Assembly: GCA_013407085.1 (NCBI GenBank)
Contig: JACCGJ010000653.1
Location: 1 to 64,000 of the forward strand
Direction of reading: 5' to 3'
Length of the DNA stretch: 64,000 nt
Source of the DNA: Atriophallophorus winterbourni
Lineage: Eukaryota > Platyhelminthes > Trematoda > Plagiorchiida > Microphallidae
Part shown: piece after piece, positions 1,058 to 41,900 of the stretch
Position numbering within the stretch: the stretch's first letter is position 1
Layout: each line of letters starts with the position of its first letter
The notes under the pieces: generated by a model
The model's input: only the letters and a program-made list of their open reading frames with translations
Told to the model about the DNA's origin: nothing
The model's database searches: none
Made by a program: the position numbers and the translations under genes

Positions 1058-4000
1058 CTTGAGATCTCGATGAGTAATACCATTTTCGTGTAGATACTGA
1101 AAAAGAAGCAATCACGTTATATAGAATGAAACAAACCACGGAAAAGTTTCAACTAATTGCGCATACAGTGGAAATAGTTTCGGGAGACATACCACAAAAG
1201 CAAAGCTTTATCGCTTGGTTGGGTCTGAGTTGAGGTGCGTGATATTAAATCTCCCATAAAGTATGTTCAAATCCACAAATCTTCGCGTAATTCTGTTTCA
1301 AAAACCCTAGGCAAAATCTACCGAAAGACATAGATATCATGACGGGCGTGTCAAATTTCCGGGGTTAAAGGTCACTGCCAATTTCTTTCGAACTCTTAAT
1401 GCTGCCATTATTCAGGTTATGTTATTCGCTCTCTACCCTGCTTGGTTGCATTTCCCTCCAATTCTTATGAGACAACATGATTTAACTTATAAACAAGCAG
1501 TACAAACAAATATCATAAAAAGCCATAACAGATCACCGCGCAACATCTATCTTAAATAGCGCCATCAAATTGTTTCACTGATAACACAGATAATTAGTGA
1601 GACGGTGATTAATCACCGACGGTCACGATAGACTCACAAACCAACCCCAGCAAGTTTCTCTGCGGATCGAATGGTTGCTGAAGATTGCTAGAGAATTTAC
1701 GACTGAATATGCCCGAGCATTTACTCGCTAACCAAGTATCCATGGTGCAACACTTTGGATCTGCACTGGTACCATTGTGCCAGTAAGGAGTTCCAGCGAA
1801 GAGCTCGTCACCGTTTCACTATCTAGATTGCTTTCTAAAATTACCGTTTACATCCACTCAACCGGATGATCAAGCAGACCACATGAAACACAAGTAATTG
1901 CGCGGCACTTTGCCTGAATCCAGGCGCATGAGTTCATATATACTCACTCACAAAAACTCCAAAACCAGTTAGCGTTTAGTAAAGTTATGGTCATCATCAT
2001 GGACAGCATTACATATAGCAGCAGTCCATATATTTGGAAGACAGAAAAAGGGATAATGAATCGATGTTTATTTGTCGCCCACAGCTAAAAAACCCGGGGT
2101 TTATTTGAATGCCTTCATAATATGGAGCTAAAGATGGACGCCTTAATGAAGAATCGTCATTCTACGAAATCCAGGGTAAAGCTCAAGGTGATAAAAACAA
2201 GAGATCCCATTCGTGTTATCAGAAATGGAAAAGTTGAAACAAAAGCTATGGCACATTCACAACTGTAGCTTTTCATTGAGAAATAAAAATGCAGGTAGGG
2301 ACGGCAAATCGAATACTTGCTATTAAAGAGAGGAAGCTGCTATAATTGCCCGAAAACGTGAGGCCCGTGGTTCTGGGCTTCAGCATTTACCAACTGAAAG
2401 TAGTTAATAAAGTCGACTCCCGAGCAGGTTACGTTAACGAGAGCGCACGACTTAGGTAAATTTGGGTTGCGATATTTGGGCAGTGATACGTTTGAATGAG
2501 TTTTCTCTACAAGTATAAAATACTATATAGCGAACATCGGCGAATGCAGAATGCCATGCGGCAAGGAAAACGGAAGATACGCATGGTTACTTCATATGTG
2601 CGTAAAAAAAACAGTTAAAAATTGAAAGAGTTACTTGCATGCAAACAGCTCTTGAAGGGCACTCAAATCACTTACCTTTACTGCTATGACAACTTGAAAG
2701 AAAAGAAACTTAGCATCAAGTTCCGGTAGACGGCCTAGACTGACAATACGATCGAACAGCTCTCCACCTTCGACTCTAAACGAGAATGACCAAGGTAAAC
2801 GAAAAAATCAACTTACAGTTCTAATATCATGAAAATAGCATCATTGGTATCAAGCACATCGAAGATTCTGATAGTGAAAGGCTGGAAGGAATAAAGGGCA
2901 TTAATTAACATAAACCGCAACAACAACATATCTCAAACAAGACACGACTTTAACTACAGCGTCTATGACAGAGCAGACAATCACGATATGCCAACTGATT
3001 CAATCAATTGGTAAAATCAACGGAGTGAATGCGACTAATATGACTATATTGGACGGAAATGTCTGTGAAGATGGCATTTGTCTAGGAGCCACACGACCGG
3101 TACTACTTTACTTTTGTGCGACTATCTCCTCCAGGAGGATGAGTCGGCTTCAAAGAAGATTCTTGGGAATTGGGTACAAAGCGGCGTCCCCAGCACCACT
3201 CGGCGTTTGTTCGAGTCAGCTTCTCTAGCCTTTGCACAACCAAGTGCGACCTGCAAGGCAGTAGGAAGTTTGCAGAAAGAGGTGGTGTTCACCAACTAAC
3301 TGTTTACCAGACTCGGTTCCAGGGTTTTCTCCCGAGCCTTTCCGGCGATCGGGTATCCCACAAGGCAGCGGAGGTTTAAATTTATGGTTTTCCTTCCCTT
3401 AAATGAAATGCTCTACAGGCTAACGAGCCCCATCTGCCGAAGCAAAAAACTGGTTTTCAGGCGCCAGTAACTGGCTTTCGCCCCCCTTCTCCTGTTGGTA
3501 GTAGAGCAGTTCCGCCGGGCTCGCGGGAGCCACTAGGGCAGGCCAGAAGCTGGACTTGGTTGTCAAAGGCTATTTGAGACGCGTGCCATATGGGAGCATT
3601 TTATAAACAGTGGGAGCTTATCCCCACTGCCACCCCCGGCTATGGCAACCGGTACTAAAGTCGCAAAGTCATTCAATAGGCATGGTGACCGAGTCTCCAG
3701 TCTAGGATAGGGTTTACTAGCTCAGGTGATTCCCTAAGCTGTTTCATCCATTCTAGAGACGACTACATGCAGAACAAGGTTGTATGTGGGGCTACCCGCG
3801 GCGCCGCTCTACTGTAATGTATCTCGGGGTCACAGATGTTTTTCGAAAATCAGTAAACTCTGTGATTCTCCAAAAACAACACAGAATAACTCAGTGAGTG
3901 AGCATCAGTATCTACAAAAAAACACTGCATAAATTCAAATCCAAATAAAGTTACCCGAGCAACTAGATTGCAAGAAATCGCAGATGATACGTAAACGATA

Positions 4001-5617
4001 AAACACGGGGTTATCTTTTTAGGTCTGAAGCAGTCTAGACCTAAAAAGTGGCACATACTATGAGTGATATGGATGCATCGCTTAACTATGGGATTACATT
4101 TCGAATCCATTACCTAACATGAGTATCGCTTGATGAACCACTATAGCAGGTGTTTTAATATTTTCATTCGTGACTTCGCTAAAGAATAACGTCCCACCAT
4201 GTACAGACTAAACTGTAAAACGCAAAGGTCGTAAGTTTGCTCAAACAAGGGAAGCATACTCGATGCGAGTTAAAACACAGTACAGTTGAGTTTTGAAACC
4301 ACACGAATTTTAAGGGGTCACAAAACCGCCAATCTATCACAAAGACACATGCAATACAGACCGAGACGCTTTCAGATGTCCATAGTCCAGTACAAGTAGA
4401 ATTAAGTTTAACTTGACAGCCAATTATTCAGTTTGACAAACCTAAACTTTGGTTGCCAGATCCACACAGTACATGTATGAAATCACAAGCCTGATTTATG
4501 CAAAGTGCTGCACATGGGCTAAGATACCGCTAGGTTGCCCAGGCCTAAATAGATATAAGAAAAAATGGCAGTGAGATTCCAGCGCGTTTCCGCGTGCAGC
4601 TGACTACCGATGGCGAATCAATCTAGCACGATGTTAGCTGCACAGTACACAAGCACTGCACAATGGAACACAGTATAAGTAAAGTGATCAAATATATAGA
4701 AACTACCAGTTTCGGAGCGCAGATGATGTGAGTCTTAGAGTGCAATGAGTTTTTTCGAGCGAGCACAGTCAGAATGAGGTGAGACGACAAATACTCATGT
4801 AAATAAACAGAAAACGACCACTTACATGTTTCAGCCTCATAAGTATATCAACTTCTGATTTGATACGAAGAGTTACATCCTGTAAAATTGCACATAAATG
4901 TGTGATGTGACGAACCTTGTCGAATTTTTGGTTGACTGAGAACGTCTTCTTAGAAACGATCTTCATTGCTCGTCGTTTACATGTTTCCTTTTCGAAGACA
5001 AGCCTAACTTCGCCACAAGCACCACTGGAAAATAGCGAGGGAAGAAACATACCGTCCAATGAGTTTTGAGATAGCGAATCTTTTCGTAACATCTGGCGGA
5101 TACCCATCGTGCACACAGTTTGAATCGGAGAAAATGAAACCTAGCGAATAAATTTAGAAAGCGAAAGACCAACATTTCAAATTTGTTAGGGAAAGCGAAA
5201 TCTCATCGTTATTATTCAGCGGTTGACTTTTACCCCGTCCAAGCTTAGCGCCATTGACGAAGGTTCCGTTACTACTCAGATCTTCAATGAAGACTAAATT
5301 TCCTTGGTTGCCATTTTCCTTAAAGTTCGAGAAAAAATTCAATTACCACATAGATTCGAAAATGCTTCTTGCTTAGCGTGGAAAACTGCGTGAGGTTATC
5401 GAACATTGTCAACACGAAGATGAAGTCACAATCGTCCGCACGTCCAAAGACATAGGATGTGGATGTGAGATCTGGTACAAGTAAAAAGAACAAGTGCTCC
5501 AATACCGAAAGCGGGGAATTGTTTCCTTAATGGCAAAAGCCTTCCCCATGGGCGAACTTCTTCAATCATTTCTACTTGTTGACTTTCATCGATGTCTTGA
5601 GTGGGAAACAAATCCAT
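1058..5617 (-). CDS. CHEK2: CHK2-type checkpoint kinase, 5' part (runs off window)
   Basis: Serine/threonine kinase that in animals relays ATM-dependent DNA-damage signals in the nucleus. Eight or nine exons join in phase: 5617-5506, 5471-5347, 5318-5174, 5140-5053, 5024-4916, 4879-4826, 2881-2817, 2775-2676 and 1096-1058, giving 279 codons. The FHA domain lies at about residues 20-125 (YVFGRADDCDF, SKKHFRI, SSNGTFVNGAKLGRG, LNNNDEISLSL). The kinase N-lobe follows: GRGACGEVRL glycine loop, AMKIVSKK with the ATP-binding lysine, then EGGELFD and the catalytic loop YLHENGITHRDLK. The DFG, activation loop and C-lobe are not in the window. The start is the ATG at 5617, followed by TQ and SQ dipeptides, a very short SQ/TQ region for this family. 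Introns inside 4826-5617 are 28-36 bp; later ones are 0.1-1.9 kb and carry repeats. The 36-bp intron (4880-4915) is a multiple of 3 and could be retained. Orthology rests on FHA-kinase order and close motif match. Confidence 0.93.
1097..2675 (-). other. CHK2 intron, no other gene seen
   Basis: AT-rich sequence between the exon ending EGGELFD...AVK and the YLHENG exon. GT and AG are present at both ends in minus orientation. I see no coding or repeat structure inside. Confidence 0.6.
3175..3650 (+). repeat. interspersed repeat family A, copy 1
   Basis: About 470 bp shared with 33865-34222 and in part with 54290-54440. Shared blocks include tctctagcctttgcac, gacctgcaaggcag, cggttttcc-type purine stretches, ctggttttcaggcgccagt, cgccatatgggagcatt and tccccactgccacccccggct. 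It lies in the large CHK2 intron. It carries no recognisable protein, so it may be a SINE or the untranslated end of a LINE. Confidence 0.7.
4473..4672 (-). repeat. fluke SINE-like repeat, about 200-bp form
   Basis: Full-type copy on the minus strand. It runs from the gtatgaaatcacaagcctg end through ggctaagatac and gcccaggcct to tagcacgatgttagc and the gcacaat end. Diverged, within the CHK2 intron. Confidence 0.75.
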
Positions 5618-8779: not shown

Positions 8780-10620
8780 CGTTACTAACCGCTCGTGGCA
8801 TACTTCCAAAAATCGACGGATAACTTCTAAGTCCCTACTGTTTGGAAGGAAGGTATCATCACTCCCATTTTCAAGGGTGGAAGCCGTAGTGATCCTGCAA
8901 ATTACCGTCCAGATATCCTTCTCCTAGTGCTATCCAAGGTGATGGAAGCGATTGTTGCCGATGAAATTATCGCTTTTGTGAATGGTTCCTATATTATCGC
9001 TGCAGAACAACATGGATTTCGTAAAAGGTATTCCTATACCTCTAATTTTCTTTTAGCCAGAGACTGCTGGACTAAAGCTGCTGCTGAAGGTCAGGGTGCG
9101 GACGTCATTAACTTGGATTTCTCTAAGGCATTTGACCAAGTTGACCATGCGATGTTGCTTAACAAGCTGCAACCACTAGGTATTTTACACGTATTGCCGT
9201 CCCGGATAGCTGCATTCTTACGTTCGCGAAACCTTCGGGAGCTTGTTAGACAGACCCTTTCAGAACCATTCCCTATCCAGCGTGGAGTACCTCAAGGGTC
9301 CGTACTTGGCCATCGTCTATTTTTTATGTTTATCAACGACATTGGAGGGTACGTCGAATCACCATTTCTACTGTTCGTGGATGATATCAAGGTTTGGCGA
9401 GTCATCAACTAACCCAGCGATAAAAGGATACTTCAATGCGAACTGGATTCATTACGCACATGTTCTACGATCGACCGCTTACCATTTAACACTGATAAAT
9501 GCCATGCATTACGCAATCGTCTTCCTGGCAACCCTAGCTATATTCTGGGTGGCAAGATGCTTGCTGTCACAACGCAAGAAAAAGATCTCGAGGTGATTGT
9601 ACAAAATGACTTAAGCTGTTCTGCTCAGTATAGTAGAGCTTCAACCGTGGCAAATAGAATCGTTGGGTTTTTAAAGCGTTCGTAACAATCGATCCACGTC
9701 TTTTTCCGTTTCTTCTTCATGCGTACATCAGGCCACGCTTAGAGTATGCTGTCTCCGTTTGGAACCCATGAGTGAAACGTGACCAGCACGGCCTAGAACA
9801 GCCACAGAGACGTTCCACAAAGCTTGTCAAGGGGCTTAGCTTTGTCCGCTACGAGGAACGTCTTACAACTCTACAAATGTTCTCTACAAACTACCTTCGT
9901 ATCCGAGGCGATCTGATCCTTGCGTATCGGATATTGACGGAAGAAACTCACCCATGTAGTGGTATGCTGAAAATGGACCCAAACTCAGGAAATCGTGGTC
10001 ATCACCTGAAGTTGGCACATCTGCACAGTAGATTGGACTGCCGCAGACACTCCTTTGCTGTCCGGATTCCCTGTGTTTCGAACGCACTACCCCTTTCGGT
10101 TATCTCTGCCCTATCCCTAAATATTTTTAAAGAACGCCGTGACCTCCATTTTTATCATACGATACACAATTCTTGATTATGCATTTTTTCACGATTATAT
10201 TCTTTGTGAAACTGCACCATATCTTTCTCTTTGTCCACAGCGTTTTCCGTCCCAACAAATATGGATCACGTTTCTCTTCGACCACTGTTGAACAGCTGAA
10301 ACTTATTCAGACCCAATTTGCTAACTATTTTGTGGTTATTCCATTAAGCTTGTAGCTTTTTTCACAATACACTATTGACTATTTCTTTCTTTCCACAGCG
10401 TTTTCCGTCTCAACTAATATGGAGCACATTTCTCTTCGACCACTTTGCTGAACTGCTGAAACTTATTCAGACCCAATTTACTAACTATCCTGTGGTTATT
10501 CCATTAGGATTGCAGCTTTTTTCCCACAATACACTATTGACTATTGACATTGTGCGACCCTCTGTACACACCACCCAGTGGTTTCTTACAAGCTATCAGC
10601 TTTTAATACCACAATAAAAC
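8780..10620 (+). pseudogene. CR1-like LINE (Jockey group), 5'-truncated
   Basis: Reverse transcriptase of the CR1/Jockey kind. ITPIFKGGSRSDPANYRP is near 8855, EQHGFRKRYS near 9008, VINLDFSKAFDQVDH at about 9105-9150, RGVPQGSVLG at 9282-9310 and the YxDD box as FVDDIKVW at about 9375. The main frame stops at 9412. The C-terminal portion resumes in another frame at 9772-10176 (RGDLILAYRIL, a CR1 hallmark near the 3' end). The 3' untranslated region contains a 158-bp tandem duplication, and the element ends in short actattg repeats at 10610-10632. Frameshifts and stops make it non-functional. Confidence 0.88.
10235..10555 (+). repeat. 158-bp tandem duplication in LINE 3' UTR
   Basis: The block starting ccacagcgttttccgt at 10235 recurs at 10393, with ctgaaacttattcagaccc and tgtggttattccatta at matching offsets. 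The copies are similar but not identical. Confidence 0.85.
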
Positions 10621-16729: not shown

Positions 16730-16946
16730 AGACTATAGTACAGTTGTATATTGTGTATCATCTTAATTTGTTAACTTAGATATTATCGTTTCGTTTCGAT
16801 TACCAATAACGCAATATTGTTTTTCGATCTCTTTTGATCGTTATCACTCACATTGATTCGATTTTCTTTTCGTTAACTTAGTTAACGATATTCATCTGTT
16901 AAATACCATTTGTACATAATCAACAGATTTATTAATAACAATATAC
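16730..16946 (-). repeat. gypsy LTR relic, inner half (interrupted)
   Basis: Reverse complement of the LTR seen complete at 57780-58118. Shared blocks include tgtatcatcttaatttgttaac, tatcgtttcgtttcgatta and aacgatattcatctgttaaa. The other part of this LTR lies at 17823-17872, beyond two inserted CR1 ends. Confidence 0.75.
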
Positions 16947-17612
16947 TCAAGATTCAAGATTCAAGAATTTCTGGTCACAAAAAGCACATGGCTTCACAAT
17001 TACCATATCATAGTAAATATTCGTTCAGGAAGTAGGTATAAAATAAACATTTAATGTCAAGTATAGTCAAGCTGTATAGTTACCATGAGTCAATACGCAG
17101 GTGTCGTCAAATCGCTATGCAACAAATAAGTATCCAAATTTCGAATAAACGCTTCGATGCTGGGAGAGATGACAAGAGTTTCGGGGAGGAAATTCCAAAG
17201 GAAACAGACACGTACACAATAAAAATATCGGCGACAGCTGATACGGGAGTGGGGAATTTGCAGTGTCGCTTGAGTGGCTGCGTGTATGACGTGACTCACG
17301 GTATTGAATAAATGTTTTAAGGGATGATGTGGGGTATTTAATATTTTGTATGTTAGTATCACATCGCTTCGAATGCTTTTTTGAAGGGGAGTGGGAGCCT
17401 CAGATTTTGCAATCGTTCCTCGTACGTTAGTTTTCGGAAACCTGTTACGTGTTTGGTTGCGCGATGGCATATTTTGTCAAGCAATAGTATATCCTTTTTA
17501 ACCACGGAGTCCAAGCTTGTGATGCATACTCTATGGTTGGAATTATATAGGCTTTCATGATGGTGGGCAACGTTGTTCACGAGTGGTCTTTGTTCTTCAG
17601 TGGTTGTCTCAG
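16947..17612 (-). pseudogene. CR1-like LINE 3' fragment, minus orientation
   Basis: 5'-truncated CR1-type end. Minus-strand reading gives TYEERLQNLRLPLPFKKA, then SDVILTYKILN and RYFYCVRVCFLWNFLPETL, ending TTPAY-stop near 17090, followed by the 3' UTR and the cttgaatcttgaatcttgag tail at 16947-16966. It sits head-to-head with the plus-strand copy that follows. Confidence 0.8.
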
Positions 17613-17822
17613 CATCGGAACGTTTATTCGAAATTTGGATACTTATTTGTTGCATAACGATTTGACGACACCTGCGTATTGACTCATGGTAACTATACAA
17701 CTTGACTATACTTGACATTACATGTTTATTTTATAACTATTTCCTGAATGTATATTTACTATGATATGGTAATTGTGAAGCTATGTGCTTTTTGTGACCA
17801 TAAATTCTTGAATCTTGAATCT
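17613..17822 (+). pseudogene. CR1-like LINE 3' end, plus orientation
   Basis: The last coding residues (SIGTFIRNLDTYLLHNDLTT) are on the plus strand, followed by the same 3' UTR and the cttgaatcttgaatcttgg tail as the neighbouring minus copy. The two form an inverted repeat with arms of about 210 bp (16952-17160 versus 17613-17820). Confidence 0.8.
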
Positions 17823-17872
17823 TGGATATAACTGGAGCCAACACAGTCTTAGGATCCATTCCTCAATAGCGA
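17823..17872 (-). repeat. gypsy LTR relic, outer part
   Basis: Reads as the reverse complement of the LTR start: gatataactgg and cctcaatagcgactaca correspond to ccagttatatc and the tgtagt-type start followed by agtgagg in the copies at 21543 and 57780. About 65 bp of LTR is missing at the interruption. Confidence 0.65.
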
Positions 17873-17920: not shown

Positions 17921-19093
17921 CTACTGTTCTATTCTCAAGCGTGATAATACATTATCATCATACATTGCCATCATAGGGATGGCATCAATATTTTTTATTT
18001 ATTATTTTCATTGAAGAAAACTGGGATGATTCTTAATGCGTCCAACTTCCTTTTCTTCTCGAACGCACCAGTCTGATCTGTTTGTTCAAGTGTATATCTG
18101 ATTTATCTGATATTGTTATCAGTTATTTGAGCACCTTTTCTTTATAATGTTGACCACTTTTGCCTTTTTGTTATATCTATAATGAAAACTCGCTGTATTA
18201 GTCCGGTCATACGAAACCGAAAACATATGTTATTAGTGCATCGGTCGTCGCACACGATAAATATGTTCGCCTTATCTGCTTCATACAACAGGTCGAGTAA
18301 GCGAAAACAAGCTACTGTTCTATTCTCAAGCGTGATAATACATTATCATCATACAGTGCCATCATAGGGATGGCATCAATATTTTTTATTTAATATTTTC
18401 ATTGAAGAAAACTGGGATGATTCTTAATGCGTCCAACTTCCTTTTCTTCTCGAACGCACCAGTCTGATCTGTTTGTTCAAGTGTATATCTGATTTATCTG
18501 ATATTGTTATCAGTTATTTGAGCACCTTTTCTTTATAATGTTGACCACTTTTGCCTTTTTGTTATATCTATAATGAAAACTCGCTGTATTAGTCCGGTCA
18601 TACGAAACCGAAAACATATGTTATTAGTGCATCGGTCGTCGCACACGATAAATATGTTCGCCTTATCTGCTTCATACAACAGGTCGAGTAAGTGAAAACA
18701 AGCTACTGTTCTATTCTCAAGCGTGATAATACATTATCATCATACATTACCATCATAGGGATGGCATCAATATTTTTTATTTAATATTTTCATTGAAGAA
18801 AACTGGGATGATTCTTAATGCGTCCAACTTCCTTTTCTTCTCGAACGCACCAGTCTGATCTGTTTGTTCAAGTGTATATCTGATTTATCTGATATTGTTA
18901 TCAGTTATTTGAGCACCTTTTCTTTATAATGTTGACCACTTTTGCCTTTTTGTTATATCTATAATGAAAACTCGCTGTATTAGTCCGGTCATACGAAACC
19001 GAAAACATATGTTATTAGTGCATCGGTCGTCGCACACGATAAATATGTTCGCCTTATCTGCTTCATACAACAGGTCGAGTAAGCGAAAACAAG
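17921..19093. repeat. three tandem 391-bp repeats
   Basis: Units start at 17921, 18312 and 18703 (ctactgttct), an exact 391-bp period, with only a few base differences by eye. Each unit contains atctgatttatctgatattg and an open stretch starting MKTRCISPVIRNRK. The array ends about 130 bp before an RTE-type endonuclease start, so it may be the monomeric 5' end of that element. Confidence 0.93.
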
Positions 19094-24700: not shown

Positions 24701-26950
24701 ACCGAGAATGGCTGGGAATGCTCATTTTAGATGCATACAATCGCTTGAAGAATTACGCAGAAATAATCAACATTTAAAGGCAAAAGTGTGAAGACCGATT
24801 TGGACCCGAACTGACGCAACGTTTAGAAAACGCCATCACAATAACGACTCGAAAAGTCAAAGCCAACAAGCGATGTGACCTGGAAAACAACATTTACAAT
24901 ATCACCCCTTATCAGGACAAAACCAGTGGGGAACTTTGGGTCAAAAACCTATCCAAAAGACCCCTTACTGAGAACGAACAACGCATTCTCGGACGCGGCC
25001 TCAACTTCAACTTGAAAGACGCTGATCACATTCAGTTTGTGGCTTATTTGGAGTCGATATTGAAGTCTCATACCTCGTCAGAAGATACGCGCGAAGAAAT
25101 CCGTCAAAGAATTGTACCCGCACTTACCAGGAACATAGAACATACCTCACTCAATAAATAAGAAATCAAAGCATTGCACAAACTGAAACGAGACCAGAAC
25201 ATCGTTAAACTTTCCGCTGACAAAGGAAGAATGACTGCCATAATGAACAAGGCAGAATATATCGAGAAAGCTGAACAACTACACAGTGACACAACAACAT
25301 ACAGACGGATAAACGAACACCTGACAAAACGACTTGAAAAGAAAATCAACGCAAGCTTGAAGAAATTGAAGTTCATGGGACAACTGAATGGAGTAGAAGA
25401 AACGAGAATGAAGCTGCAAGACTCCACTATACCCAGATTCTACGGATTACCAAAAATACAAAAAGAAAATATTCCATTGCGCCCGATAGTTTCTTTGCCA
25501 TGAGGACCAACATACAAGTTATCTAAAGAGCTGTGGAGAAAACTGTTATAGCTAGCAGCAGATTCGGAACATTTGGTCAACTCTGCCGAACAATTTTTGA
25601 GGAAATTGAACAACGTGAAGATCGAAGAGGACGAACTAATGGTTTCTTTCGACATAACGGCACTATTCACGTCACTCGTCAGAACACTCGTCAAGCAAAC
25701 TATATCATTTTTACTCAATGAAAAAGGAACGGAACATAATGGAAATCGATTGACACACGAAAGTTTAATGGAACTGATCGAGCTGTGTCTTTAAACGCAC
25801 TTCAAGTTTAATGGAAAGATGTATGAACAAATCCGAGGAACACCATTGGGATCACCGATTTCCAGCTTAGTTGCTGAGGCAATTATGCAACGTTTGGAAC
25901 GAATTGCCCTGCCAATAATCCGACCAAAATTATGGATCCGCTACGTGGACGACACCTTCGTGATTATGGAAAGAACAGAACTAGATGAATCACATCGACT
26001 GCTTAATTGTGTATTTACTGGAATCCAATTTACAAAGGAAACTGAAGATGACGTCTGTTTACCATTTCTGGATGTTCAAGTGAAGCGAACAAGCGATGGA
26101 ACGTTAGAGACCTGCGTCTACCGGAAAACCACACACACGGATCAAATACTGAACTTTCACAGCAAGCACCCAAACATTCACTAACGCAGTTGCGTCAGAA
26201 CTCTATTCAAAAAAGCGGCAACCCACTGCAGTACAGATGAACTGAGAAGGAAATAAGAAAAATATCTGTTCAAAATGTTCCAGAAAAATGGATATCCAAG
26301 AAGCTTCATACTACGCAACAGGTTCAACCGCTCACAACAAAGAACCCCAGAATAAAGCAGAAGCAGACGCACTCTGCCCTATATCCAACATATCTCTGAA
26401 ATCGCATAAACCCTTCACCAACACTTCGCAACCACTTCAACAACACGAAAGATAAAGTGGCAAAAGAATAACAGTCGAATATCGTCTACAAGATTTCATG
26501 CAGAGACTGCGAAAAGAACTACGTCGGACAAACTGGTCGCAAACTCAGCACAAGACTACATGAAAACCAGTTGGCCGTACGCATATATGACCGGAATTCA
26601 CTTATTTCAATACATGTTGATCAGTTTGGGCATCAGTTCGACTGGGACCGCACAAGAATATTAGACAGAGGAAACGACCGTCGGGCGCGAGAATTCCAGG
26701 AAGCGGGGCACTCAACAACAAATTCAATTAACCAGCGTCTCCAACTGGCTGCAACATATGGACTAATGAGAAACCGCTCACGGAGATGGCATAACATGAA
26801 CTCGACCAATCCGCGGGAGTGACCGTGCACGTACAGGCAAACGGTATAATAACCAGCGAATTCCAACTACAAGACGCTTCGAAAGAAATTTTGCAGATGA
26901 TGTCATCTAGCCTGATGACGAAACGTCCAAGAACAACTACGCAAGCTCGG
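24700..26950 (+). pseudogene. Penelope-like element: RT plus GIY-YIG endonuclease, decayed
   Basis: The N-terminal block ELWVKNLSKRPLT and GRGLNFNLKDADHI (24930-25025) is typical of this class. The RT follows: KLSADKGRMTAIMNKAEY (25200-25260), PRFYGLPKIQKENIPLRPIV (25435-25495), VSFDITALFTSL (25645), RGTPLGSPISSLVAE (25835-25880) and WIRYVDDTFVIM with the YVDD catalytic box (about 25945). The endonuclease starts NIVYKISC..C..NYVGQTGRKLSTRLHE (26477-26565), matching the VYxIxC...YxGxTxR pattern of Penelope GIY-YIG domains, and runs to a stop at 26819. In-frame stops at 25159 and 25501 and frameshifts near 25545, 25792 and 26182 inactivate it. No intact product is possible. Confidence 0.9.
26911..26927 (+). 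other. hammerhead-ribozyme-like core boxes near Penelope 3' end
   Basis: The sequence cctgatgacgaaacgtcc places the CTGATGA and GAAAC boxes next to each other, about 90 bp after the endonuclease stop. Hammerhead ribozymes are known in Penelope-like elements, but here stem II is absent, so activity is doubtful. Confidence 0.4.
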
Positions 26951-30000: not shown

Positions 30001-30770
30001 ATTTTATCAAAGCTGGGCGACTACCTGGCACCAATCTATACAAGACATTGGTATTGGTATGTATTTGGCCGCTTTTTTGAAAGAAAAGAGCCTCTGTTAC
30101 TCTGATTTTTGAATTCGACGAAGATTGGCCTTAATTGAATTCATTTCTTCTACAGAGCGATTCTATGGACCCGAACTAACTTAATATTGGGCTTGAGGTT
30201 TCATAAACGCAATAGATTCTGCACACATTGGCGATCTAAGCTTCTTCGTGATTTAGCATTCTCTATAAAATGCTCTTGTTCGTTTATAATCACAATATTT
30301 CTGGTCCTAGTTTTCATAGTTTTCTCAGGAACAGCGCCTTTTCTCGACTGTCGCAATTAACAGCGGATTAAAGCTAATTGCGATTTAATTGTCGCTCATT
30401 CCCTTGCTTGTACGTGTACGTGCTACTGTTTGAGCTCGCTCTTCTTCTTACGCTGGCTAACAACAGTGCTGTTAGTTTTTAACCGAGTCGTTTCTGATGC
30501 CTTATGTACATCCGCCGGCTTAGAAAGTATTGGTTTGGACGATGACATAACGTGCGCATACGATTTCTGGGTCGGTTCCTGCAGAGTCTCCGGTATCGCA
30601 ACTTCTTTGGATTCTATTCTAATCATGTATGGGCTGCATACACCGTATAACGGCCCTTTAATATACATGAGCACTTTTGGTGCGCATAGCCTTTGCGGGT
30701 ACAGCATTCGATTCCATTTGTTACGTGCTAACCACAGCCTGCCTTCCGGCATGGGGAAGTAATATGAGTC
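27040..30770 (-). pseudogene. CR1-like LINE, near full length but heavily decayed
   Basis: Minus-strand element in many broken frames. An ORF1-like or N-terminal region is at 30423-30770 (RLCAPKVLMYIKGPLYGV, then Lys/Ser-rich). The endonuclease region at 29324-29890 reads LYTKACSVRSKWLRLM, ILGVSEIWLRNTD and SWDKPDGRRGG, as in CR1 elements. RT remains at 27681-27905 (SWVPQGSVLDSIFFLIFIDD and MFADDVKIT, the FADD box), and the C-terminal region at 27050-27480 has RPIGDLIETVRIMK and VESIWNELLDKRQ. The LTR element 30771-32375 inserted at its upstream end. Confidence 0.82.
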
Positions 30771-30934
30771 TGTGATGATTGTTTGAATAATAATCAATAC
30801 TAATCAATAATTCCGTAATTCAAATTCTCGTTGTTAAAGCTATATTAATTATTACATACGGTAGTTCGTGTGAGCGTGGTTTGTTCTTACTTCAATTCTT
30901 GGGTTGGTAATTCAATACAATTCAATTCATCACA
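30771..30934 (+). repeat. left LTR of the Gag-BRC element
   Basis: 164 bp, TGTGATGA...TCATCACA. Contains aatcaatactaatcaat repeats and a run of ttcaat/acaattcaattc near its end. The base run after it (cggcgtcgcgaac at about 30937) is a possible but non-canonical primer-binding site, since no TGG follows the LTR. Confidence 0.93.
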
Positions 30935-30960
30935 TTCGGCGTCGCGAACAGCAATTCTTC

Positions 30961-32190
30961 ATGGCGAATTCAATTTTGGAACCTCTTGATATAAATGCAA
31001 ATGCTCGAGATATTGAAGACTATTTTGAAAGATTCGAAATTCGGTGTATGACACGGCCGAAAGCAGAAAATGATAAAAAAAAGTCTGTTCATTTTCTAAA
31101 TTAAATCGGAAAATCTGCTTATACGTTAATAAAAAAATTGGATTATCCGGAAGCGCCCATTTCCATTCCATACGAAACGCTGAAGGCGCTTTTAATGCAA
31201 CACGTGAAACCTGTACATTTCGAACCAACCGAACGTGCAAAATTTCATTCCATGGCGCGTCAGTCCAATGAAGAAATTCGCGATTTTATTCTGCAGGTGT
31301 TAATTCAGGCAACGAAATGCAACTTCGTTGACTGGTTAGAAATGCAATTAAAAGATAGTCTAATCGCTGGTATAAATGACAGTTTTTTGCAGAAAGAGCT
31401 ATTAAAACTGCCAAAACCCTCTTTTAAAGATGTTCGAGTTCATTGTGAACAGTATCAAGATGCGCGTGTGGCAACGACAGATTTGTCGCCAACAGAAAGT
31501 TATGCCATGTATAAGACAAATAATCGTAAAATAACGAAGAATGCTACAGCAGGTCAACAGCTGAAGTATCAACAGAATGATGATGATACCTTAACTATGC
31601 CGCTTGGCGAAAAACGAGACGTTGACTTTCATACATCCTATCATAGCATGGAGAACGCTCCCGTTACGCTGGATATTCAAACTGCAGCTGGAAAGACAGT
31701 TCGACCGATTTCTAACAGTGCCATTGCTCATGCTAAATCTCTTTTTTATCATGAAAATTTGACTTCACTATCAACCGACTCAAGCGATACTCCTGTTAAC
31801 ACGTCCACATCCGACCGAATCATTGATTCAAACGGAAAATCTAGTTTTCATTACCAAGAAAGTGGCTTCAAAGTTAGCAAACTTCTGAGTTCATCAGATA
31901 CCATTTCAAATAAATCACCGAACTCATCTTATCAAGCGAATTCAGCACCGCCGTCTAGCTCATCTAAACGATCGTCAGATAATGTACATTTTAAAACCGC
32001 TAGAGGAAAAGCCTTACTGGCACATTCGACTACTGCCATTGAAAAAGCAAGACAATTGTTGGCAACTGTGGATGACGTTTCGGGTTTGCTGGAAACTCCG
32101 TGTGTTCAATCAATTCAACCTGCAGACACTGGGCAAGCTTATCATGAACATGCAACAAACCTATTCAAGATTATACAAATCCGAAGATGA
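30961..32190 (+). CDS. Gag-BRC fusion protein (one internal stop)
   Basis: 409 codons plus stop, broken only by a TAA at 31102-31104 (codon 48). Residues 1-180 are a Ty3/gypsy-type Gag: DYFERFEIR, stop, IGKSAYTLIKKLDYPEA, HFEPTERAKFHSM, ATKCNFVDWLEMQLKDSLIAG, KPSFKDVRVHCEQYQDA. Residues about 181-235 are a polar linker. Residues 239-262 (31675-31746) are BRC-like: IQTAAGKTV...ISNSAIAHAKSLF. A Ser-rich linker (NSAPPSSSSKRSSDN) leads to residues 344-367 (31990-32061): FKTARGKALL...STTAIEKARQLL. Both follow FxTAxGK-x-hydrophobic...S..A...A[KR]xL[FL], the RAD51-binding pattern of BRCA2 BRC repeats. The Gag would assemble particles; the tail would bind RAD51. The fusion is read directly; function is inference. 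The BRC units replace the position usually held by a zinc knuckle. Confidence 0.88.
31675..31746 (+). other. BRC-like repeat A (RAD51-binding motif)
   Basis: Residues 239-262 of the fusion. T-A-A-G-K is canonical, and the downstream helix AIAHAKSLF followed by an acidic residue (YHE) fits the LFDE half-site of BRC4. The first aromatic is changed (F to I in IQTA), which in human BRC4 would weaken the FxxA contact. Confidence 0.8.
31990..32061 (+). other. BRC-like repeat B (RAD51-binding motif)
   Basis: Residues 344-367. FKTARGK keeps both the F and the A of the FxxA RAD51 oligomerisation mimic. The second half-site reads KARQLL rather than LF, followed by ATVDD. Spacing from GK to the L[LF] pair is identical in repeats A and B (one residue longer than human BRC4). 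Confidence 0.85.
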
Positions 32191-32206
32191 TTGGAACTGC
32201 GGTGGT

Positions 32207-32375
32207 TGTGATGATTGTTTGAATACTAATCAATACTAATCAATAATTCCGTAATTCAAATTCTCGTTGTTAAAACTACATTAATTATTATATACTGCAG
32301 TTCGTGTGAGCGTGATTTGTTCTTACTTCAATTCTTGGGTTGGTAATTCAATTCAATACAATTCAATTCATCACA
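32207..32375 (+). repeat. right LTR of the Gag-BRC element
   Basis: 169 bp, same ends as the left LTR, with a 5-bp expansion in the aattcaattcaatacaattc tract. The preceding ggaactgcggtgg is a weak polypurine tract. Confidence 0.93.
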
Positions 32376-32940
32376 GAGTCATGTTGTAGATATATAGAAT
32401 ACAGATAGTTATATTCAAGTAATGCACTGAATATATGTTGCAATTTCACAGAAAAGCAAAAATTCGTAATATTAAATCAGAGCATGGGAAACAAAACAAA
32501 GTTGAACGTACCGCGCAGTTTTTTGCATTCCTCAATTCGTAATCATTATTTTGGCAGTAACTGCTATGTATGCATCTAATCAATCACACTTTGATTAAAA
32601 TGCTCGATAGGTTTACTTTATTGTTATAACTATTTGATAAATCTCCATTCGCTTCTAATAATTTTGGCGGCTTTTTCTGAATCCTCTGTGCAGATATGCA
32701 AACCGCTGAATTTGTCGTAGTCCGATGATCACCTTCGTTAGTTTATAGATGAAGTCTAGAAAAAAGGATCTGAGGTATTTGTAAATTGTTTATTTATGTC
32801 GTAGGATATCTCGTAAGTCAAAAGTTACATCTATTGGGAGGTCGCGTTATCCGAATGGAACAACTACAAAGTACGGAAATTGCACTGTTTTGTTTTTGTC
32901 ATTCCATAACGTAGCATTATATAAAACCACAATTTTTTAG

Positions 32941-35900: not shown

Positions 35901-38900
35901 CAAAAAAATGTGCAATATCATGCTTGTATGTTGCATAAATTGTAATAATGTACTCTTTGTTGTTTTTGTGTATGCTTCTCGAGTTTTGATTCAGTTGCGT
36001 CAGGTTGATTACAATGGGGAGCGAGAGACTGCGCAATCAGGAGTACCGAATTCAGGTATTTCCTAATGCTCGTCAAAATTAACAGGCGTGTTTTCTTCAA
36101 GATTGATAGGGCTAGTGGCCTGCAGGCAATCGTTACCTTTTGAAGCTGGATGACGGATTGAAACTGCATCTTCTCAATCATCAGGTAAACCTACGTGGGC
36201 ATTTTGCAGGTTGCATTCTAACAATTCAACTTCGTATCATATTTGGAATCCATGGAATGCTTCTTGAGCAACACAACACCGAGTGTGGTTAGCCACGTAG
36301 GAAGGGTAGTACCTGTCGATGACTGACGATTTTATGCAAACAGGCGTTCCTGTGGTGTGGTGTTTGTAGCGGTGCATAGTAGCGACCGAATTGAGTGCAA
36401 CGCATCCTGAAGACCGTCTCCCATTGGCTAGTAAAGAGACCACGGGATTTCAGAGTAAGTAGAATCGACTTCCATAAAGTGCAATTGAGCCGTTCAACTT
36501 GACCGTTGCACTGTGGATTATATGGCGTTGTACGGCTAGTGGCGATGCCATTGTCGTGGAGGAATTGCCTTAGTTCAGTAGACACGACAGAGGGACCGCG
36601 AAGTGTATAAAAACTGGCTTACCAAATGTCGTGAAAACTACCCGAAAGCAGTTGATGATGGTTTGTGATGTCATGTCAGGGTAAGGAAAAGCGAACGGGA
36701 AGCGGGAATATTAGCAAGTAACGGTTTCGGCTTGTTGATGGTAGTGGCCCTACAGACTGAGTATTTCGAAAGGTTGGGCGGCCTTTATCATGTGGGCGCC
36801 TGTAGGTTTGAATTATTGAGGCTTTATTTCACAACAGACAGAACAATCAGCAGTCATTTTTGACCTCGTTCAAGGAGTAAGGCAATTTTCGCGCACGAAT
36901 GAAGCGGGTGGCATAAATTCTCATGTAGCTGACGCAATTTTATTAATAGTTCCACAAAACCACATACGGCACGCGAAAGTGCATTCGCTGCTTGATTCTG
37001 TCGGCCTGATCGGTAAATCACATCGTATTGGTATTGTGACACCTCTAAACACCAACGTTGAATCTTGTCGTTTTTTATTTTACCACGCTGTTCATTGTCA
37101 TGAATAAAGGAGACGGAACGCTCGTCTGTCACTAGCCTGAATGGGTGGTTTATAAGATAATGCCTCCATTTCCGGACAGCGTCAACGATTGCACACGCCT
37201 CTTTTTCGATTGCCGAGTGGTGTTGCTCACTGTTATTCAGCGTTCGTGAGAAGAAAGCTACTGGCTTACCACTCTGATTAAGCGTTGCGGCAATCACGAC
37301 GTCAGATGCATCAGTTTCTACTGTCAATGAAACCCGTGATCGATTATGATTAGCAAGGCATATTCGAGACGGCATTTTAACTGTTTGAATGCAGTAAGCG
37401 CAGATTCAGGAGGAGGGAAAACTTAGTTATGGATCAATGTGAGTATTAGGCAAACATGCCAACTGCTCATTGTTCAGATTTACTATCTATTTGTGACCAG
37501 GCGGTCTTGGTCCGGTTTGATCATACCTTCGGACACTTCGTAACCATGTATTTTGATTGAACTGACGGCAATTAAACTCTTCGTATCATTGGACGTTAGT
37601 CCATACGTTCCTGCCATTTTCAAAAAGTTAAATAGGTTTCTGTTGTGGTCGGCTTTATCTCGAGCACAGATGACGACATTGTCAATGTACGCGAACGTGC
37701 CAGATAGTTTTTCTTTGAATATTAGTTCATCGATGATCCGCTTAAAACGCGACTCCGTTGGCCACACCAAATGTAATTCGACAGAATTGATAGAGTCTCC
37801 CGGCAGCTTCGAATACGGTGAATGCTTTATCCCCGTCACGTAGGGGTATTTGGTGATATGCGCTCGGCAGATCTAGAGTACTGAAAACATTGTAAACAGC
37901 GACATTTTCAACTAGTTGATTGATCTTTGGTAAAGGGTAACCATTATAGTATGTGAACCTGTTAATAGTCTGGCTGTAATAAATAGCTAACCGCTATTGT
38001 GACGTTCGCTGGTAGTAACTAAAACCTGAGCCCGCCAAGGAGAAGAAGATTGCTCAATTATACCTTCTTTCAACAGTTGTTCAATCTCCGATCTGATGAA
38101 ACGCTCATCGACAAAAGAGTGGCGTTTGGATTTAGTGACTATAGGCTTTCAGTCAACAGATTAGTTTTTGAAGAGAGATGTGGGTGTGACTTCGGCTGCC
38201 ATAAGTTCACATATATAGAGTGAAGTTTTAGGGCCTCCGAACGGGATCTCCTCTTTTTCGTACATTTGTCAAAAAGTCATGTCCAAACAGTACGTCTGAA
38301 CACAGATTAGGCATGACTGAAAATTTGAATTGTGGATAACCCGACTTGTAGCGAATGGGTAAATAATACATTCCTTCGGTTTGACCCGTGTGTTCGGTAT
38401 TTGCAAGAGTTATTTTGTTTATACACGGAACTAGTTCCCACGAGTTCGCACAAACAACCGAGGAATTTATGTAGCTCTCTGATCTCTCGTTATCTATGAG
38501 AGCCTGCATTCGGATACCATTGGCGTAAGCAATAATGATTGCATTAGATAGCGATATTGGAGCCGCGGAACAGAACAAAGCGGAAACAACTGAACTTGTC
38601 GATGAACAGTTATTTCGCGCGTCGGATGATGACAAACAAAATGACCTTTTTCCCACGTTCTTCGCAAACAGCTTCTCTGGAAGGACACTTTGTTCTTGGA
38701 TGCCTAGATGATTCACAAAAATAACATTTTGCCCTTTGCATGGTGGCAGTCACCTCTATGGGTATCCGGATGTATTTGTATCTGATTAAGAAGAATATCA
38801 TTGCTTGTGCATGACAACCTGTTAGGGTATGATTCAGATTGTTTGAGAGCTAGTTCGAGTGACCTTGCAGTATCGAATGATCTCTGGAAGTTGAGTGTTG

Positions 38901-41900
38901 AATGCTCTAGAAATATTTTTTGGGTTGCAGTTGACTGAATGCCGCTGATGAAGGCATCACGGAGTGCATCGTCTTTATACTGCTCCATACTGACAGCACT
39001 GAAATTAAAATCCCTGGCAAGGTTTCGTAATTTATGAGTGAATAGGTCGAGTGATTGACCGTCTTCTTGCTTGCAGGTCGCCAATAAATGTCGAGCTAAA
39101 ATTTCATTTTTGAGCTTAACATATAAAGCTTTCAAGGGGAAATGGCTTTTGCGTATGAAGTACAGTCGGTAATATGGAATTACATTCACTTCACTATCGA
39201 CGTTTATGCTTTTTTTTCCGGATAATTTATTCATTAAGCAATTATCTAAACATGGAGCCGCCGTGAATTACGGATATTGCACTATTCAATCTTGTATAAA
39301 CATTTGTGTTTTCCTATAAACGTGCAGCTGTTTCACTTTGTTGACCATCCCTACTCTGCTTGTTTCAGAACCCGAGTCATTCATCGAACGTCCTTTCTAT
39401 TCGGGAAGTTCTCTCGACGAGCCATATTCGGACTTACTTGACATCAATCCTGATAGGTTTAATCGTCGACCTGCAAAATCAAGACTTTCAGATGTTGACT
39501 TCACTGATCATCTTTCCACTTCCCCACATTCTCCCATCATTCCCGAACAATCCAATCTGCCACCGAACGAAGATGTAGAGGAGGAAGAATTATTGGCACC
39601 CGAGCTTTCACTTTTGGCTGAAACCGCTGGTCTTGCATCCACCGATGGTTCTCTGATTGCAAATATTCCCCGTGAAAATTGTTTGCTGTCGAATGTTGTC
39701 GGGACTAGTGGCAGTCGGCGCAAATCCCCAGTGAGACCAATGCATGTGCTGCGTACGAAGACTGCTCCGTTAGTGAATACTTATTCATTTGGAGCTAACG
39801 TGGACCACAAGTATGTTTGGATTTTGCATGTGGTCATCCATAAAAAACAAATGTTGAACCTCATATGGCTCATTTTAAAAATCTTTTTCCCCATCTTAGT
39901 CACCCTCTCAAACACGGAAATCGGTTATTTGGGACAGATACCAATCGGATCGATGATATTGTTCCGGTTACTTATCAGCCAAACGGTGGTGATCGCGTGA
40001 GCATAGATACCGGCCTTAGTGGCTCAAAGGTTCACTATTCATCCTCTTCGGCCCTACGCATTCACTCTTCGAACCCCGCCACGAAAACCACCCTGGCCAC
40101 TTCCCGTTCCTTGCGTGATCATCCACTGGACGACCGGTCATCTGGCTCGCAATCAGAAGACGCTTTTAAATCTTCGAGTGAGTAACTAGCTTGCTTCGTC
40201 ATTTGTCATTAATCTTTTTTAGATCCCAAGTTGTTTTACTATTCATATTTGATTGTGAATTGAGCCTGTCACTGTCTAGACCTTGGCAACCTGACAGTTT
40301 CATATCCTGCGTGCAGTCTGAGACCATGCTGCACTTTGATTAGACTAGGCTTGTGTGCTCACACTTACATACATTCACAAATACATACTTTAAATCACTA
40401 GAAACATCTACTAGACGATGTAAAGATCCTCGTGTCCGTCCTATTGTTTTAAATGAAGCTTTTTGATACAACTTAGACCTGACGAAATGCACACAGATCT
40501 ATCGTGTTCAATATTGCAACTCCCAGCAGATGCATTTGCTGATGGTAGGTTTGCGTTTGAATTCTCTATCGTAATGATCCAAAAACTTAGGTTTTAATTC
40601 ATTATATCTTTTAAATCAGTTCGCCGAACCCCTATTAGTCACTATTGATCAACTAGACCCAACACTGTGCGTAGCAATAACAAAGGCAGACCTTTCAGGC
40701 AAAGAGCTATACCGTCTGACCAAAAGGCAGATTAGGCTATAGCTCGTCTTTCTGGCCAAAAACAATATGGCCCACAAACAGACCCTTCAGAATCGAGAAT
40801 CATAAATTCAAAGCTTATAATGAGTTTTTAGGAAAATAATGATATTTCCCAAGCGATATCTAGCAATATGATATCAAAATTCGAATGCTAGTATTATCTT
40901 AGATTCCTTGGAATCGTCTTGATCTGTTAAGATGATTATATTATGTCTTACTCTGATCATCGAATTTCCGATGGTTTTTCAATAAGGCATGCAACAGAAG
41001 AGGTCTTGCACTGTCTGGTGCTTTCAAGAATGGTATACGAGTTTCATGTGATCATTGTGAAACTTTAAGAAATTTTTCCCCAACTCTGTGCGCCTTCAGT
41101 ATAAAACTCACCGGCAACGTCTTGGCATTTTCTCTGCACTGCATTAAGGTTAAAATGCGGCCTATGCGAAAGCAAATTTGGTGCTTGCCAAAATCTTTCT
41201 CACCTTTGTACTTGGCGCCTGTTTATTGCAAAAAAGTTTGTTTGATCTGGAACTGTATTACTGAAGTGAAAAATGTTTTCGCTAGTCTGAAATGTTCGTG
41301 TGCCTGGTTAGGGTTCTATGGACCTTCCAGAAATGCCCACTTAGTCCTCGGCCAAAATATCTTGTCTCGCATTTCGGTTTCTAGGGTTTGAGCTCTACCG
41401 ATCTGTGCATATCGTTGTTTGTGTTAGCGGGTTTGATGATGTACACACGGATATGCTATGTTCATATTTCTTTTTTCGACTGTGCTTAGATGTGCAATCA
41501 TACAGCACTTCTGTGCTGTGCAGCTAACACCGTGCTAAATTGATTGATCACTGGTACTGATCTGCATGTTGAAACACGCTGGAGTCTGACTACCATTTCT
41601 ATTTTTCCTGCTTGTCTAGGCATGGGCAACCTAACAGTATTTTAGCCCGCGTGCAGTCTGGCTGTGCTGCACTTTGACTGGACTAGGCTTGTGCGTTCAT
41701 ACATTATACATATGAACGCACAAGCCTAATCCTGGCAAAGTCCCGCAGGGATGTGCAATCGTGCAGCATTTCTGTGTGATGCTGCTAATATCGTGCTAAA
41801 TTGATTTGCCAACGGTTGTGAGCTGCATGCTGAAACACGCTGGTGTCCCACTACCATTTCTATTCCTCCTCATGTCTGTCTAGGGCTGCGCAACCTGACA

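What the first reader, a model, noticed from the sequence alone, without database searches (positions are those of the whole stretch)
30771..32375. LTR retrotransposon whose only protein is Gag fused to two BRCA2-type BRC repeats
Seen directly: two LTRs with TG...CA ends, an exact GAGTC target duplication, and a single frame filling the interior that starts as gypsy Gag and ends with two FxTAxGK-type motifs plus their downstream A...A[KR]xL[FL] helices. Known: BRC repeats of BRCA2 bind RAD51 and regulate its filament. Inference: the element captured host BRC-coding sequence, and its particles or cDNA complexes recruit or disarm RAD51, for example to steer cDNA into recombination, to protect it, or to block host recombination against it. 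A captured RAD51-binding module on a Gag is, to my knowledge, undescribed.
Basis: partly seen in the sequence, partly recalled or inferred. Interest (0 to 1): 0.95.

Follow-up and report, generated by a model that had tools for sequence, protein, structure and literature searches.

The report
Jumping gene carrying stolen BRCA2 repeats
A retrotransposon in what is probably a fluke genome picked up the part of the host's BRCA2 gene that binds the DNA-repair protein RAD51, fused it to its own coat protein in place of its copying enzymes, and spread it to about 150 or more places, although whether the stolen part still works is unproven.

Summary
Observation largely confirmed and extended. The window copy (30771-32375) has LTRs, a GAGTC target duplication, a gypsy Gag and two BRC-type repeats. 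Its frame is not open: TAA at 31102; its LTRs are 93% identical, so it is an old, dead copy. The BRC tail is found at 150 places of the assembly, the number at which scoring stopped. Two copies have LTR pairs 100% and 99.6% identical. Stop-to-stop Gag-BRC or Gag-zinc knuckle-protease-BRC frames reach 428-816 aa. The donor is a host BRCA2 exon whose upstream part is single copy. About 656 bp of it replaced RT-RNase H-integrase of a gypsy element, apparently once, at a 7-bp microhomology. The module also sits on a second Gag lineage. Selection: Gag is constrained in source lineages, the tail as a whole is not; but shared stops are depleted (p=0.0015), and FxTAxGK codons show weak constraint (p=0.023). 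Repeat 1 lost its RAD51-binding Phe in 99 of 105 copies; repeat 2 keeps it in 100 of 105, but is a weak BRC match even in the host. The capture is solid; RAD51 manipulation is possible but unproven.

The parts
30766..30770 (.). target-site duplication GAGTC, left copy
   Evidence: direct reading; matches 32376-32380
30771..30934 (+). 5' LTR (TGTGATGA...TCATCACA)
30961..31575 (+). Gag-derived part of the frame, interrupted by in-frame TAA at 31102-31104
   Evidence: 56% identity over 154 aa to Echinostoma caproni Gag P0001
31576..32160 (+). host-derived BRCA2 segment (donor L053:3246-3845 = C1431:74245-74844), 85.8% identical
   Evidence: L001:2306-2890
31672..31758 (+). BRC repeat 1, DIQTAAGK...AKSLFYHEN; RAD51-pocket Phe replaced by Ile
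   Evidence: host reads GFQTASGK; no Pfam match when scanned alone
31987..32076 (+). BRC-type repeat 2, HFKTARGK...ARQLLATVDD; FxxA present, LFDE-like end weak
   Evidence: PF00634 16.9 bits, under the cut-off
32161..32193 (+). C-terminal remainder of the frame and stop (TGA 32191-32193)
32207..32375 (+). 3' LTR
32376..32380 (.). target-site duplication GAGTC, right copy
   Evidence: direct reading

Best explanation
A Ty3/gypsy-type LTR retrotransposon of this genome switched template, during reverse transcription, from its own RNA to a host BRCA2 transcript and back. About 656 bp of BRCA2 (the end of one BRC repeat plus two further repeats) thereby replaced RT, RNase H and integrase, in frame at both ends. 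This made Gag-CCHC-protease-BRC elements; further deletions made the short Gag-BRC type seen in the window. They lack the enzymes to copy themselves, and are moved by those of autonomous relatives that share LTR sequence. They spread to about 150 or more places, and the BRC module also passed into a second Gag lineage. Shown: donor exon, junctions, copy number, target duplications, young copies, open frames, a pol-bearing relative, constraint on Gag. Inferred: template switching, trans-mobilisation, module transfer, translation of the tail. The BRC tail was most likely a passenger at first and is probably still translated; it may retain weak RAD51 contact through repeat 2 only. Whether that contact helps the element is open: a little under one chance in three.
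For: Donor exon with Pfam BRCA2 48.5 bits whose non-captured upstream 194 aa match one place only, against 150 scored places for the captured part. 7 of 9 copies compared start at host 3220/3221; the other 2 start at 3246. The left junction lies at AAAAAGC, shared by the pol of C681 and BRCA2. The C681 relative has RVT_1, RNase H and rve domains, its frame ends in a closely similar C-terminal peptide to that of the BRC copies, and its LTR is 91% identical to that of a young BRC copy. Exact TSDs with LTR pairs 100% (L041) and 99.6% (L044) identical. Gag A shared N/S 56/52 against singleton 252/68, p=2.4e-7. In a tail tree rooted on the host gene the 8 Gag-B tails form one clade inside 55 Gag-A tails, while Gag A and B are 42% identical.
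Against: No transcript, protein or mobilisation data. The host exon lies 4-5 kb from a contig end (C1431 ends at 78948), and no BRCA2 OB1 domain was found (its control rang nowhere, so uninformative). Whether the downstream part of the exon is single copy did not complete. Breakpoints were compared in 9 copies only. The captured block lies inside one open frame, so an RNA route cannot be proved by missing introns. Whether a B-type autonomous partner exists did not complete.
Confidence: 0.85

Rival explanations
1. Functional hijack: the Gag-BRC protein binds host RAD51 in particles or on cDNA, and this binding is selected because it protects or steers cDNA, or blunts host recombination.
For: In 81 copies not picked by frame length (73 after removing near-duplicates) nonsense changes are depleted among variants shared by at least 3 copies (2 of 236 against 24 of 431 singletons, p=0.0015; p=0.014 and 0.009 at thresholds 4 and 5), and the 14 FxTAxGK codons have fewer shared amino-acid changes (N/S 7/7 against singleton 30/5, p=0.023; 0.020 and 0.018 at thresholds 4 and 5; 2.1-4.1% of window pairs as extreme). 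Repeat 2 keeps Phe in 100 and Ala in 103 of 105 copies. FxxA Phe and Ala are essential for binding, and an LFDE-like part is dispensable in a Leishmania repeat (PMC4855620, PMC9162458, passages seen).
Against: The tail as a whole is as free to change as neutral singletons (165/69 against 291/116, p=0.79), and so are the wider 30- or 32-codon repeat cores. Repeat 1 Phe is lost in 99 of 105; the 6 that keep it were all fetched through the BRC profile itself. Repeat 2, the one that keeps FxxA, is under the Pfam cut-off even in the host (18.5 bits) and has no PDB match alone. Host LF at its end is LL in 38 of 39 readable copies, and a stop at the repeat-1 Gln sits in 6 of 40. The tests do not model relatedness or recombination.
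Confidence: 0.28
2. Pure passenger: the BRCA2 piece is filler that replaced pol; any in-frame sequence would do. The frame is kept only because young copies inherit it or because a translated C-terminus is tolerated.
For: Neutral N/S across the tail and linkers; loss of Phe in repeat 1; only 45 of 81 tails not picked by frame length are open; the tail of the young copy L041 scores only 13.4 bits for PF00634.
Against: Depletion of shared nonsense changes; shared indels (4 bins, two of them probably the same 12-nt deletion) are all in frame, against 23 of 32 frameshifting single ones; weak FxTAxGK constraint.
Confidence: 0.5
3. Chance resemblance: the FxTAxGK-like motifs are coincidental low-information matches in a Gag tail.
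For: The window copy alone is under the Pfam cut-off and gives no PDB match.
Against: 84-88% DNA identity over 508-658 aligned columns, in 9 of 9 copies compared, to a host exon with two above-cut-off BRC repeats; 12 of 20 tails exceed the cut-off; the host exon's only PDB match is BRC4 of 1n0w, weak at E=1.3.
Confidence: 0.01

Closest known systems
Maize Bs1 LTR retroelement (captured segments of three host genes, a plasma-membrane H+-ATPase among them); passages of the review PMC13317346 seen
   Same: LTR element that took up segments of host genes and forms a hybrid frame with them
   Different: Here the cargo is a RAD51-binding module of a DNA-repair gene, in an animal, at about 150 or more places, and present on two Gag lineages; that Bs1 is low-copy is recalled, from no call
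Acute transforming retroviruses with Gag-oncogene fusions (recalled)
   Same: Defective element, host coding sequence fused to Gag in place of pol, depends on a helper
   Different: No env seen here, germline spread, cargo is a peptide-binding module, not a kinase or growth signal
Non-autonomous LTR elements of the TRIM/LARD kind (recalled; TRIM survey PMC4717578 seen in listing only)
   Same: LTRs, no pol, moved in trans (inferred here)
   Different: These keep a Gag that was under selection and carry a host-derived coding module
BRCA2 BRC repeats bound to RAD51 (PDB 1n0w)
   Same: FxTAxGK plus helix; the donor exon aligns to 1n0w chain B at E=1.3
   Different: On a Gag; repeat 1 lacks Phe in most copies, repeat 2 lacks LF and scores under the BRC cut-off

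Membership tests
Ty3/gypsy LTR retrotransposon | LTR pair and short target-site duplication | tested here: met
   GAGTC in the window copy; by the crude automatic boundary 5 of 32 copies show an exact 5-bp TSD (L001 = window copy, L003, L030, L041, L044); the other 27 do not at that boundary
Ty3/gypsy LTR retrotransposon | Gag homologous to gypsy Gag | tested here: met
   Retrotrans_gag E=0.0043, below cut-off, on L044
Ty3/gypsy LTR retrotransposon | pol with RT-RNase H-integrase in the element itself | tested here: not met
   absent from the window copy; present in relative C681. Hence filed as a non-autonomous derivative
BRC repeat (PF00634) | profile score above curated cut-off | tested here: inconclusive
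   window copy 19.0 vs 20.3 bits; 12 of 20 other tails above it; host: first two repeats above it (21.6, 26.4), the third, our repeat 2, below (18.5)
BRC repeat (PF00634) | FxxA with Phe and Ala | tested here: inconclusive
   repeat 2 met (Phe 100/105, Ala 103/105); repeat 1 not met (Phe 6/105)
BRC repeat (PF00634) | binds RAD51 | not testable with these tools
   none
Host-gene-capturing LTR retrotransposon (Bs1 kind) | host donor gene separate from the element | tested here: met
Host-gene-capturing LTR retrotransposon (Bs1 kind) | RNA route shown by absence of introns | not testable with these tools
   the captured block lies inside one open exon frame

The most novel reading that the evidence does not exclude
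The fused BRC module is a working RAD51-binding device selected in the element: Gag-BRC particles carry or sequester host RAD51, so a mobile element has turned the host's recombination-control peptide into part of its own life cycle, and it handed this module to a second element lineage.
Probability: 0.28. Interest if true: 0.93.

Novelty: new variant of a known kind. Interest (0 to 1): 0.78.

Why it matters
Retroelements are known to meet the host's recombination machinery (recalled), but none of the papers listed by my searches (judged by title and start of abstract, open-access library only) describes an element that carries BRCA2's RAD51-binding peptide on its Gag. With donor, pol-bearing relative, two Gag backgrounds and both Phe-bearing and Phe-less repeat lineages in one genome, the question of whether mobile elements exploit RAD51 becomes directly testable. 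It is also a clear animal case of host-gene capture followed by high-copy spread and presence of the module on two element lineages.

Tried and rejected
Chance match of the motif: rejected once the donor exon was found. Independent captures: judged unlikely because breakpoints are shared in the 9 copies compared. Host exon being one of the repeats: rejected because its upstream part is single copy. BRCA2 OB1 domain (PF09103): no match, control silent, so uninformative. Relatives of the tail in other genomes: none among about 5.8 billion proteins with the host exon (the 7996 candidates sharing most words were scored; by the tool's length rule only proteins of about 296-941 aa) or with the L044 tail (3060 candidates); longer BRCA2 proteins and unannotated copies elsewhere were not reached. 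PDB match for the window tail: none; for host repeat 2 alone: none. Literature: one search listed 2 papers, 68 none, 70 12 of 13, 71 one, 90 ten of 869 (papers with 3 of 4 terms), 91 four; none of those listed looked by title like a report of BRC repeats in a retroelement. Young-subfamily test for tail selection: not significant (29/15 against 60/15, p=0.125, 20 copies), and that set was picked by frame length, so its lack of stops proves nothing. B-type Gag-protease selection test: 7 copies, p=0.62. Rows dropped before counts: near-duplicates (98% identical or more, 98.5%), copies covering under half the piece, loci that repeat others or are the donor or the pol relative (L024, L026, L028, L031, L034, L049, L051, L053, L074, L075), and also the 24 copies fetched because of their frame length. 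Known biases: copies were ranked by likeness to the window copy's tail or fetched through the BRC profile (L045-L048, L050, L052); the 105 copies still hold near-duplicates. RAD51 in the host, a B-type autonomous partner and the downstream part of the host exon: requests did not complete.

Full report
What is in the window. The copy at 30771-32375 has LTRs of 164 and 169 bp and an exact GAGTC duplication. Its interior frame starts at 30961 and ends at 32193, but TAA at 31102-31104 cuts it. The Gag part matches a CCHC-bearing Gag of the fluke Echinostoma caproni at 56% over 154 aa. The tail scores 19.0 bits against PF00634 BRCA2 repeat (E=0.00097; cut-off 20.3). The host is probably a trematode; the only basis for that is this Gag relative.

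A large family. A whole-genome DNA search with the copy gave 55 matching stretches from the 40 of 1721 candidates that were scored. In all 30 loci cut out, both Gag and tail are present; three of these loci repeat others in the tail. A protein search with the tail gave 150 matches, which is all 150 candidates scored of 756, at 78-100% identity, the window itself included; a few may be duplicate contigs. Many lie in long stop-to-stop frames: 428 and 446 aa recur, others reach 700-816 aa. The long ones read Gag - zinc knuckle - protease - short start of RT - BRC tail. L044 gives BRCA2 22.7 bits (above cut-off), with zf-CCHC, Retrotrans_gag and Asp_protease_2 below their cut-offs. The short ones, like the window copy, lack zinc knuckle and protease.

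The donor. A PF00634 search of the genome found 19 matches, 125 of 125 candidates scored. Of the 8 loci cut out, 7 are element copies and one, C1431:74164-74427, lies in a 538-aa frame (48.5 bits, E=5.6e-13). That locus is not part of a repeat: its upstream 194 aa match only this place; the downstream part could not be tested. Scanned singly, its repeats give 21.6, 26.4 and 18.5 bits; the third, which is the element's repeat 2, is under the cut-off. Elements align to L053:3221-3876 of this locus at 84-88% identity; 7 of 9 compared start at 3220/3221 and 2 at 3246. The left junction sits at AAAAAGC, present in both the C681 pol sequence and BRCA2; the right junction also falls in short similarity. 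The donor exon's only PDB match is BRC4 in 1n0w, weak (E=1.3); repeat 2 alone has none. The OB1 domain of BRCA2 was not found, but that search rang in no control either.

What was replaced, and who moves it. A related element at C681 has, after the same RT start, RT, RNase H and integrase domains in one open frame, no match to the donor segment in the two pieces held, and an end closely similar to the SERLLNKP...NPGSFAN peptide that ends the young BRC frames. Its LTRs are 98.5% identical to each other over the 203 bp held and 91% identical to those of the young short copy L041. A protease search lists six frames of 1134-1298 aa, C681's included, among 150 scored of 1100 candidates; only C681 was examined. 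So BRCA2 sequence replaced the enzymes, and enzymes must come in trans (inference). Recent movement is shown by L041 (LTRs 219/219 identical, TSD ACTTG) and L044 (99.6%, TSD GTAGA); the median of 32 LTR pairs is 95%.

Two Gag lineages. Lineages A and B are 42% identical in Gag protein, yet the tails of L032 (A) and L044 (B) are 88% identical. In a tail tree rooted on the host gene, the 8 B copies form one clade (support 0.96) among 55 A copies, with four A copies branching first; 42 tails of unknown Gag type were left out, and support of the deeper nodes was not examined. The simplest reading is capture in lineage A and transfer to B.

Selection. Variants found in one copy serve as the neutral yardstick, those in three or more as the record of source lineages. 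Gag A: 56 N/52 S shared against 252/68 single, p=2.4e-7 (31 copies); 74/68 against 256/69 with 40 copies. Tail: no difference (165/69 against 291/116, p=0.79), in 73 de-duplicated of 81 copies, leaving out the 24 that I had picked for long frames. In the same set nonsense changes are depleted among shared variants (2 of 236 against 24 of 431, p=0.0015; p=0.014 and 0.009 with stricter sharing), and the 14 FxTAxGK codons show 7/7 against 30/5 (p=0.023; 0.020 and 0.018 with stricter sharing). Against all pairs of seven-codon windows the motif ranks in the lowest 2.1%, 4.1% and 3.8%. The wider repeat cores show no significant constraint. Shared indels are all in frame, but they are only four bins. 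These tests do not model relatedness or recombination, so I read them as hints.

The motif itself. Among 105 copies repeat 1's Phe is Ile in 73, Asn in 24, Asp in 2 and Phe in only 6, and those 6 were fetched through the BRC profile. Repeat 2's Phe is kept in 100 and its Ala in 103. The host's LF at the end of repeat 2 is LL in 38 of 39 readable copies. Phe and Ala of FxxA are reported essential for binding (PMC4855620, passages), while the LFDE part is not critical in a Leishmania repeat (PMC9162458, passages). Repeat 2 could thus still bind, probably weakly; repeat 1 probably not. Of 20 open tails that I chose for a Pfam scan, 12 exceed the cut-off and 8 do not, the 100%-LTR copy L041 among the latter (13.4 bits); its whole frame gave no match at E<=1.

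Novelty. Host-gene capture by LTR elements is known (maize Bs1; review PMC13317346, passages). A BRC module on Gag at about 150 or more places and on two Gag lineages was not seen among the papers listed (open-access library, titles and abstract starts) nor among proteins of other genomes within the length limits searched. I file it as a new variant of a known kind.

Noticed in passing
window 17921-19002: Three head-to-tail copies of a 391-bp unit, 99% alike over 300 nt, beside a long 94% inverted repeat (16942-17165 / 17607-17830).
   Followed up: no
window 36854-39267, - strand: Remains of another gypsy-like element: RNase H piece (RT_RNaseH E=1.3e-27) and neighbouring frames that by recall look protease- and Gag-like.
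   Followed up: partly
window 8831-9412 + and 25795-26184 +: Reverse-transcriptase fragments (RVT_1 E=5.4e-19, and 6.4e-5 below its cut-off), by recall probably of non-LTR elements.
   Followed up: partly
window 4769-5140, - strand: Frame that by recall looks like an exon of a Chk2-type kinase (GACGEVRLVFEKETCK...); Pfam gave nothing at E<=0.01.
   Followed up: partly
L065-L071 upstream of Gag: A short IHTIQD-coding repeat just before Gag varies in copy number between young copies (428 and 446 aa frames).
   Followed up: no
L002, L004, L005, L007 (repeat 1): A lineage that shares a stop at the repeat-1 Gln, yet exists in several copies; either it moved without the tail or spread as part of larger duplications.
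   Followed up: no
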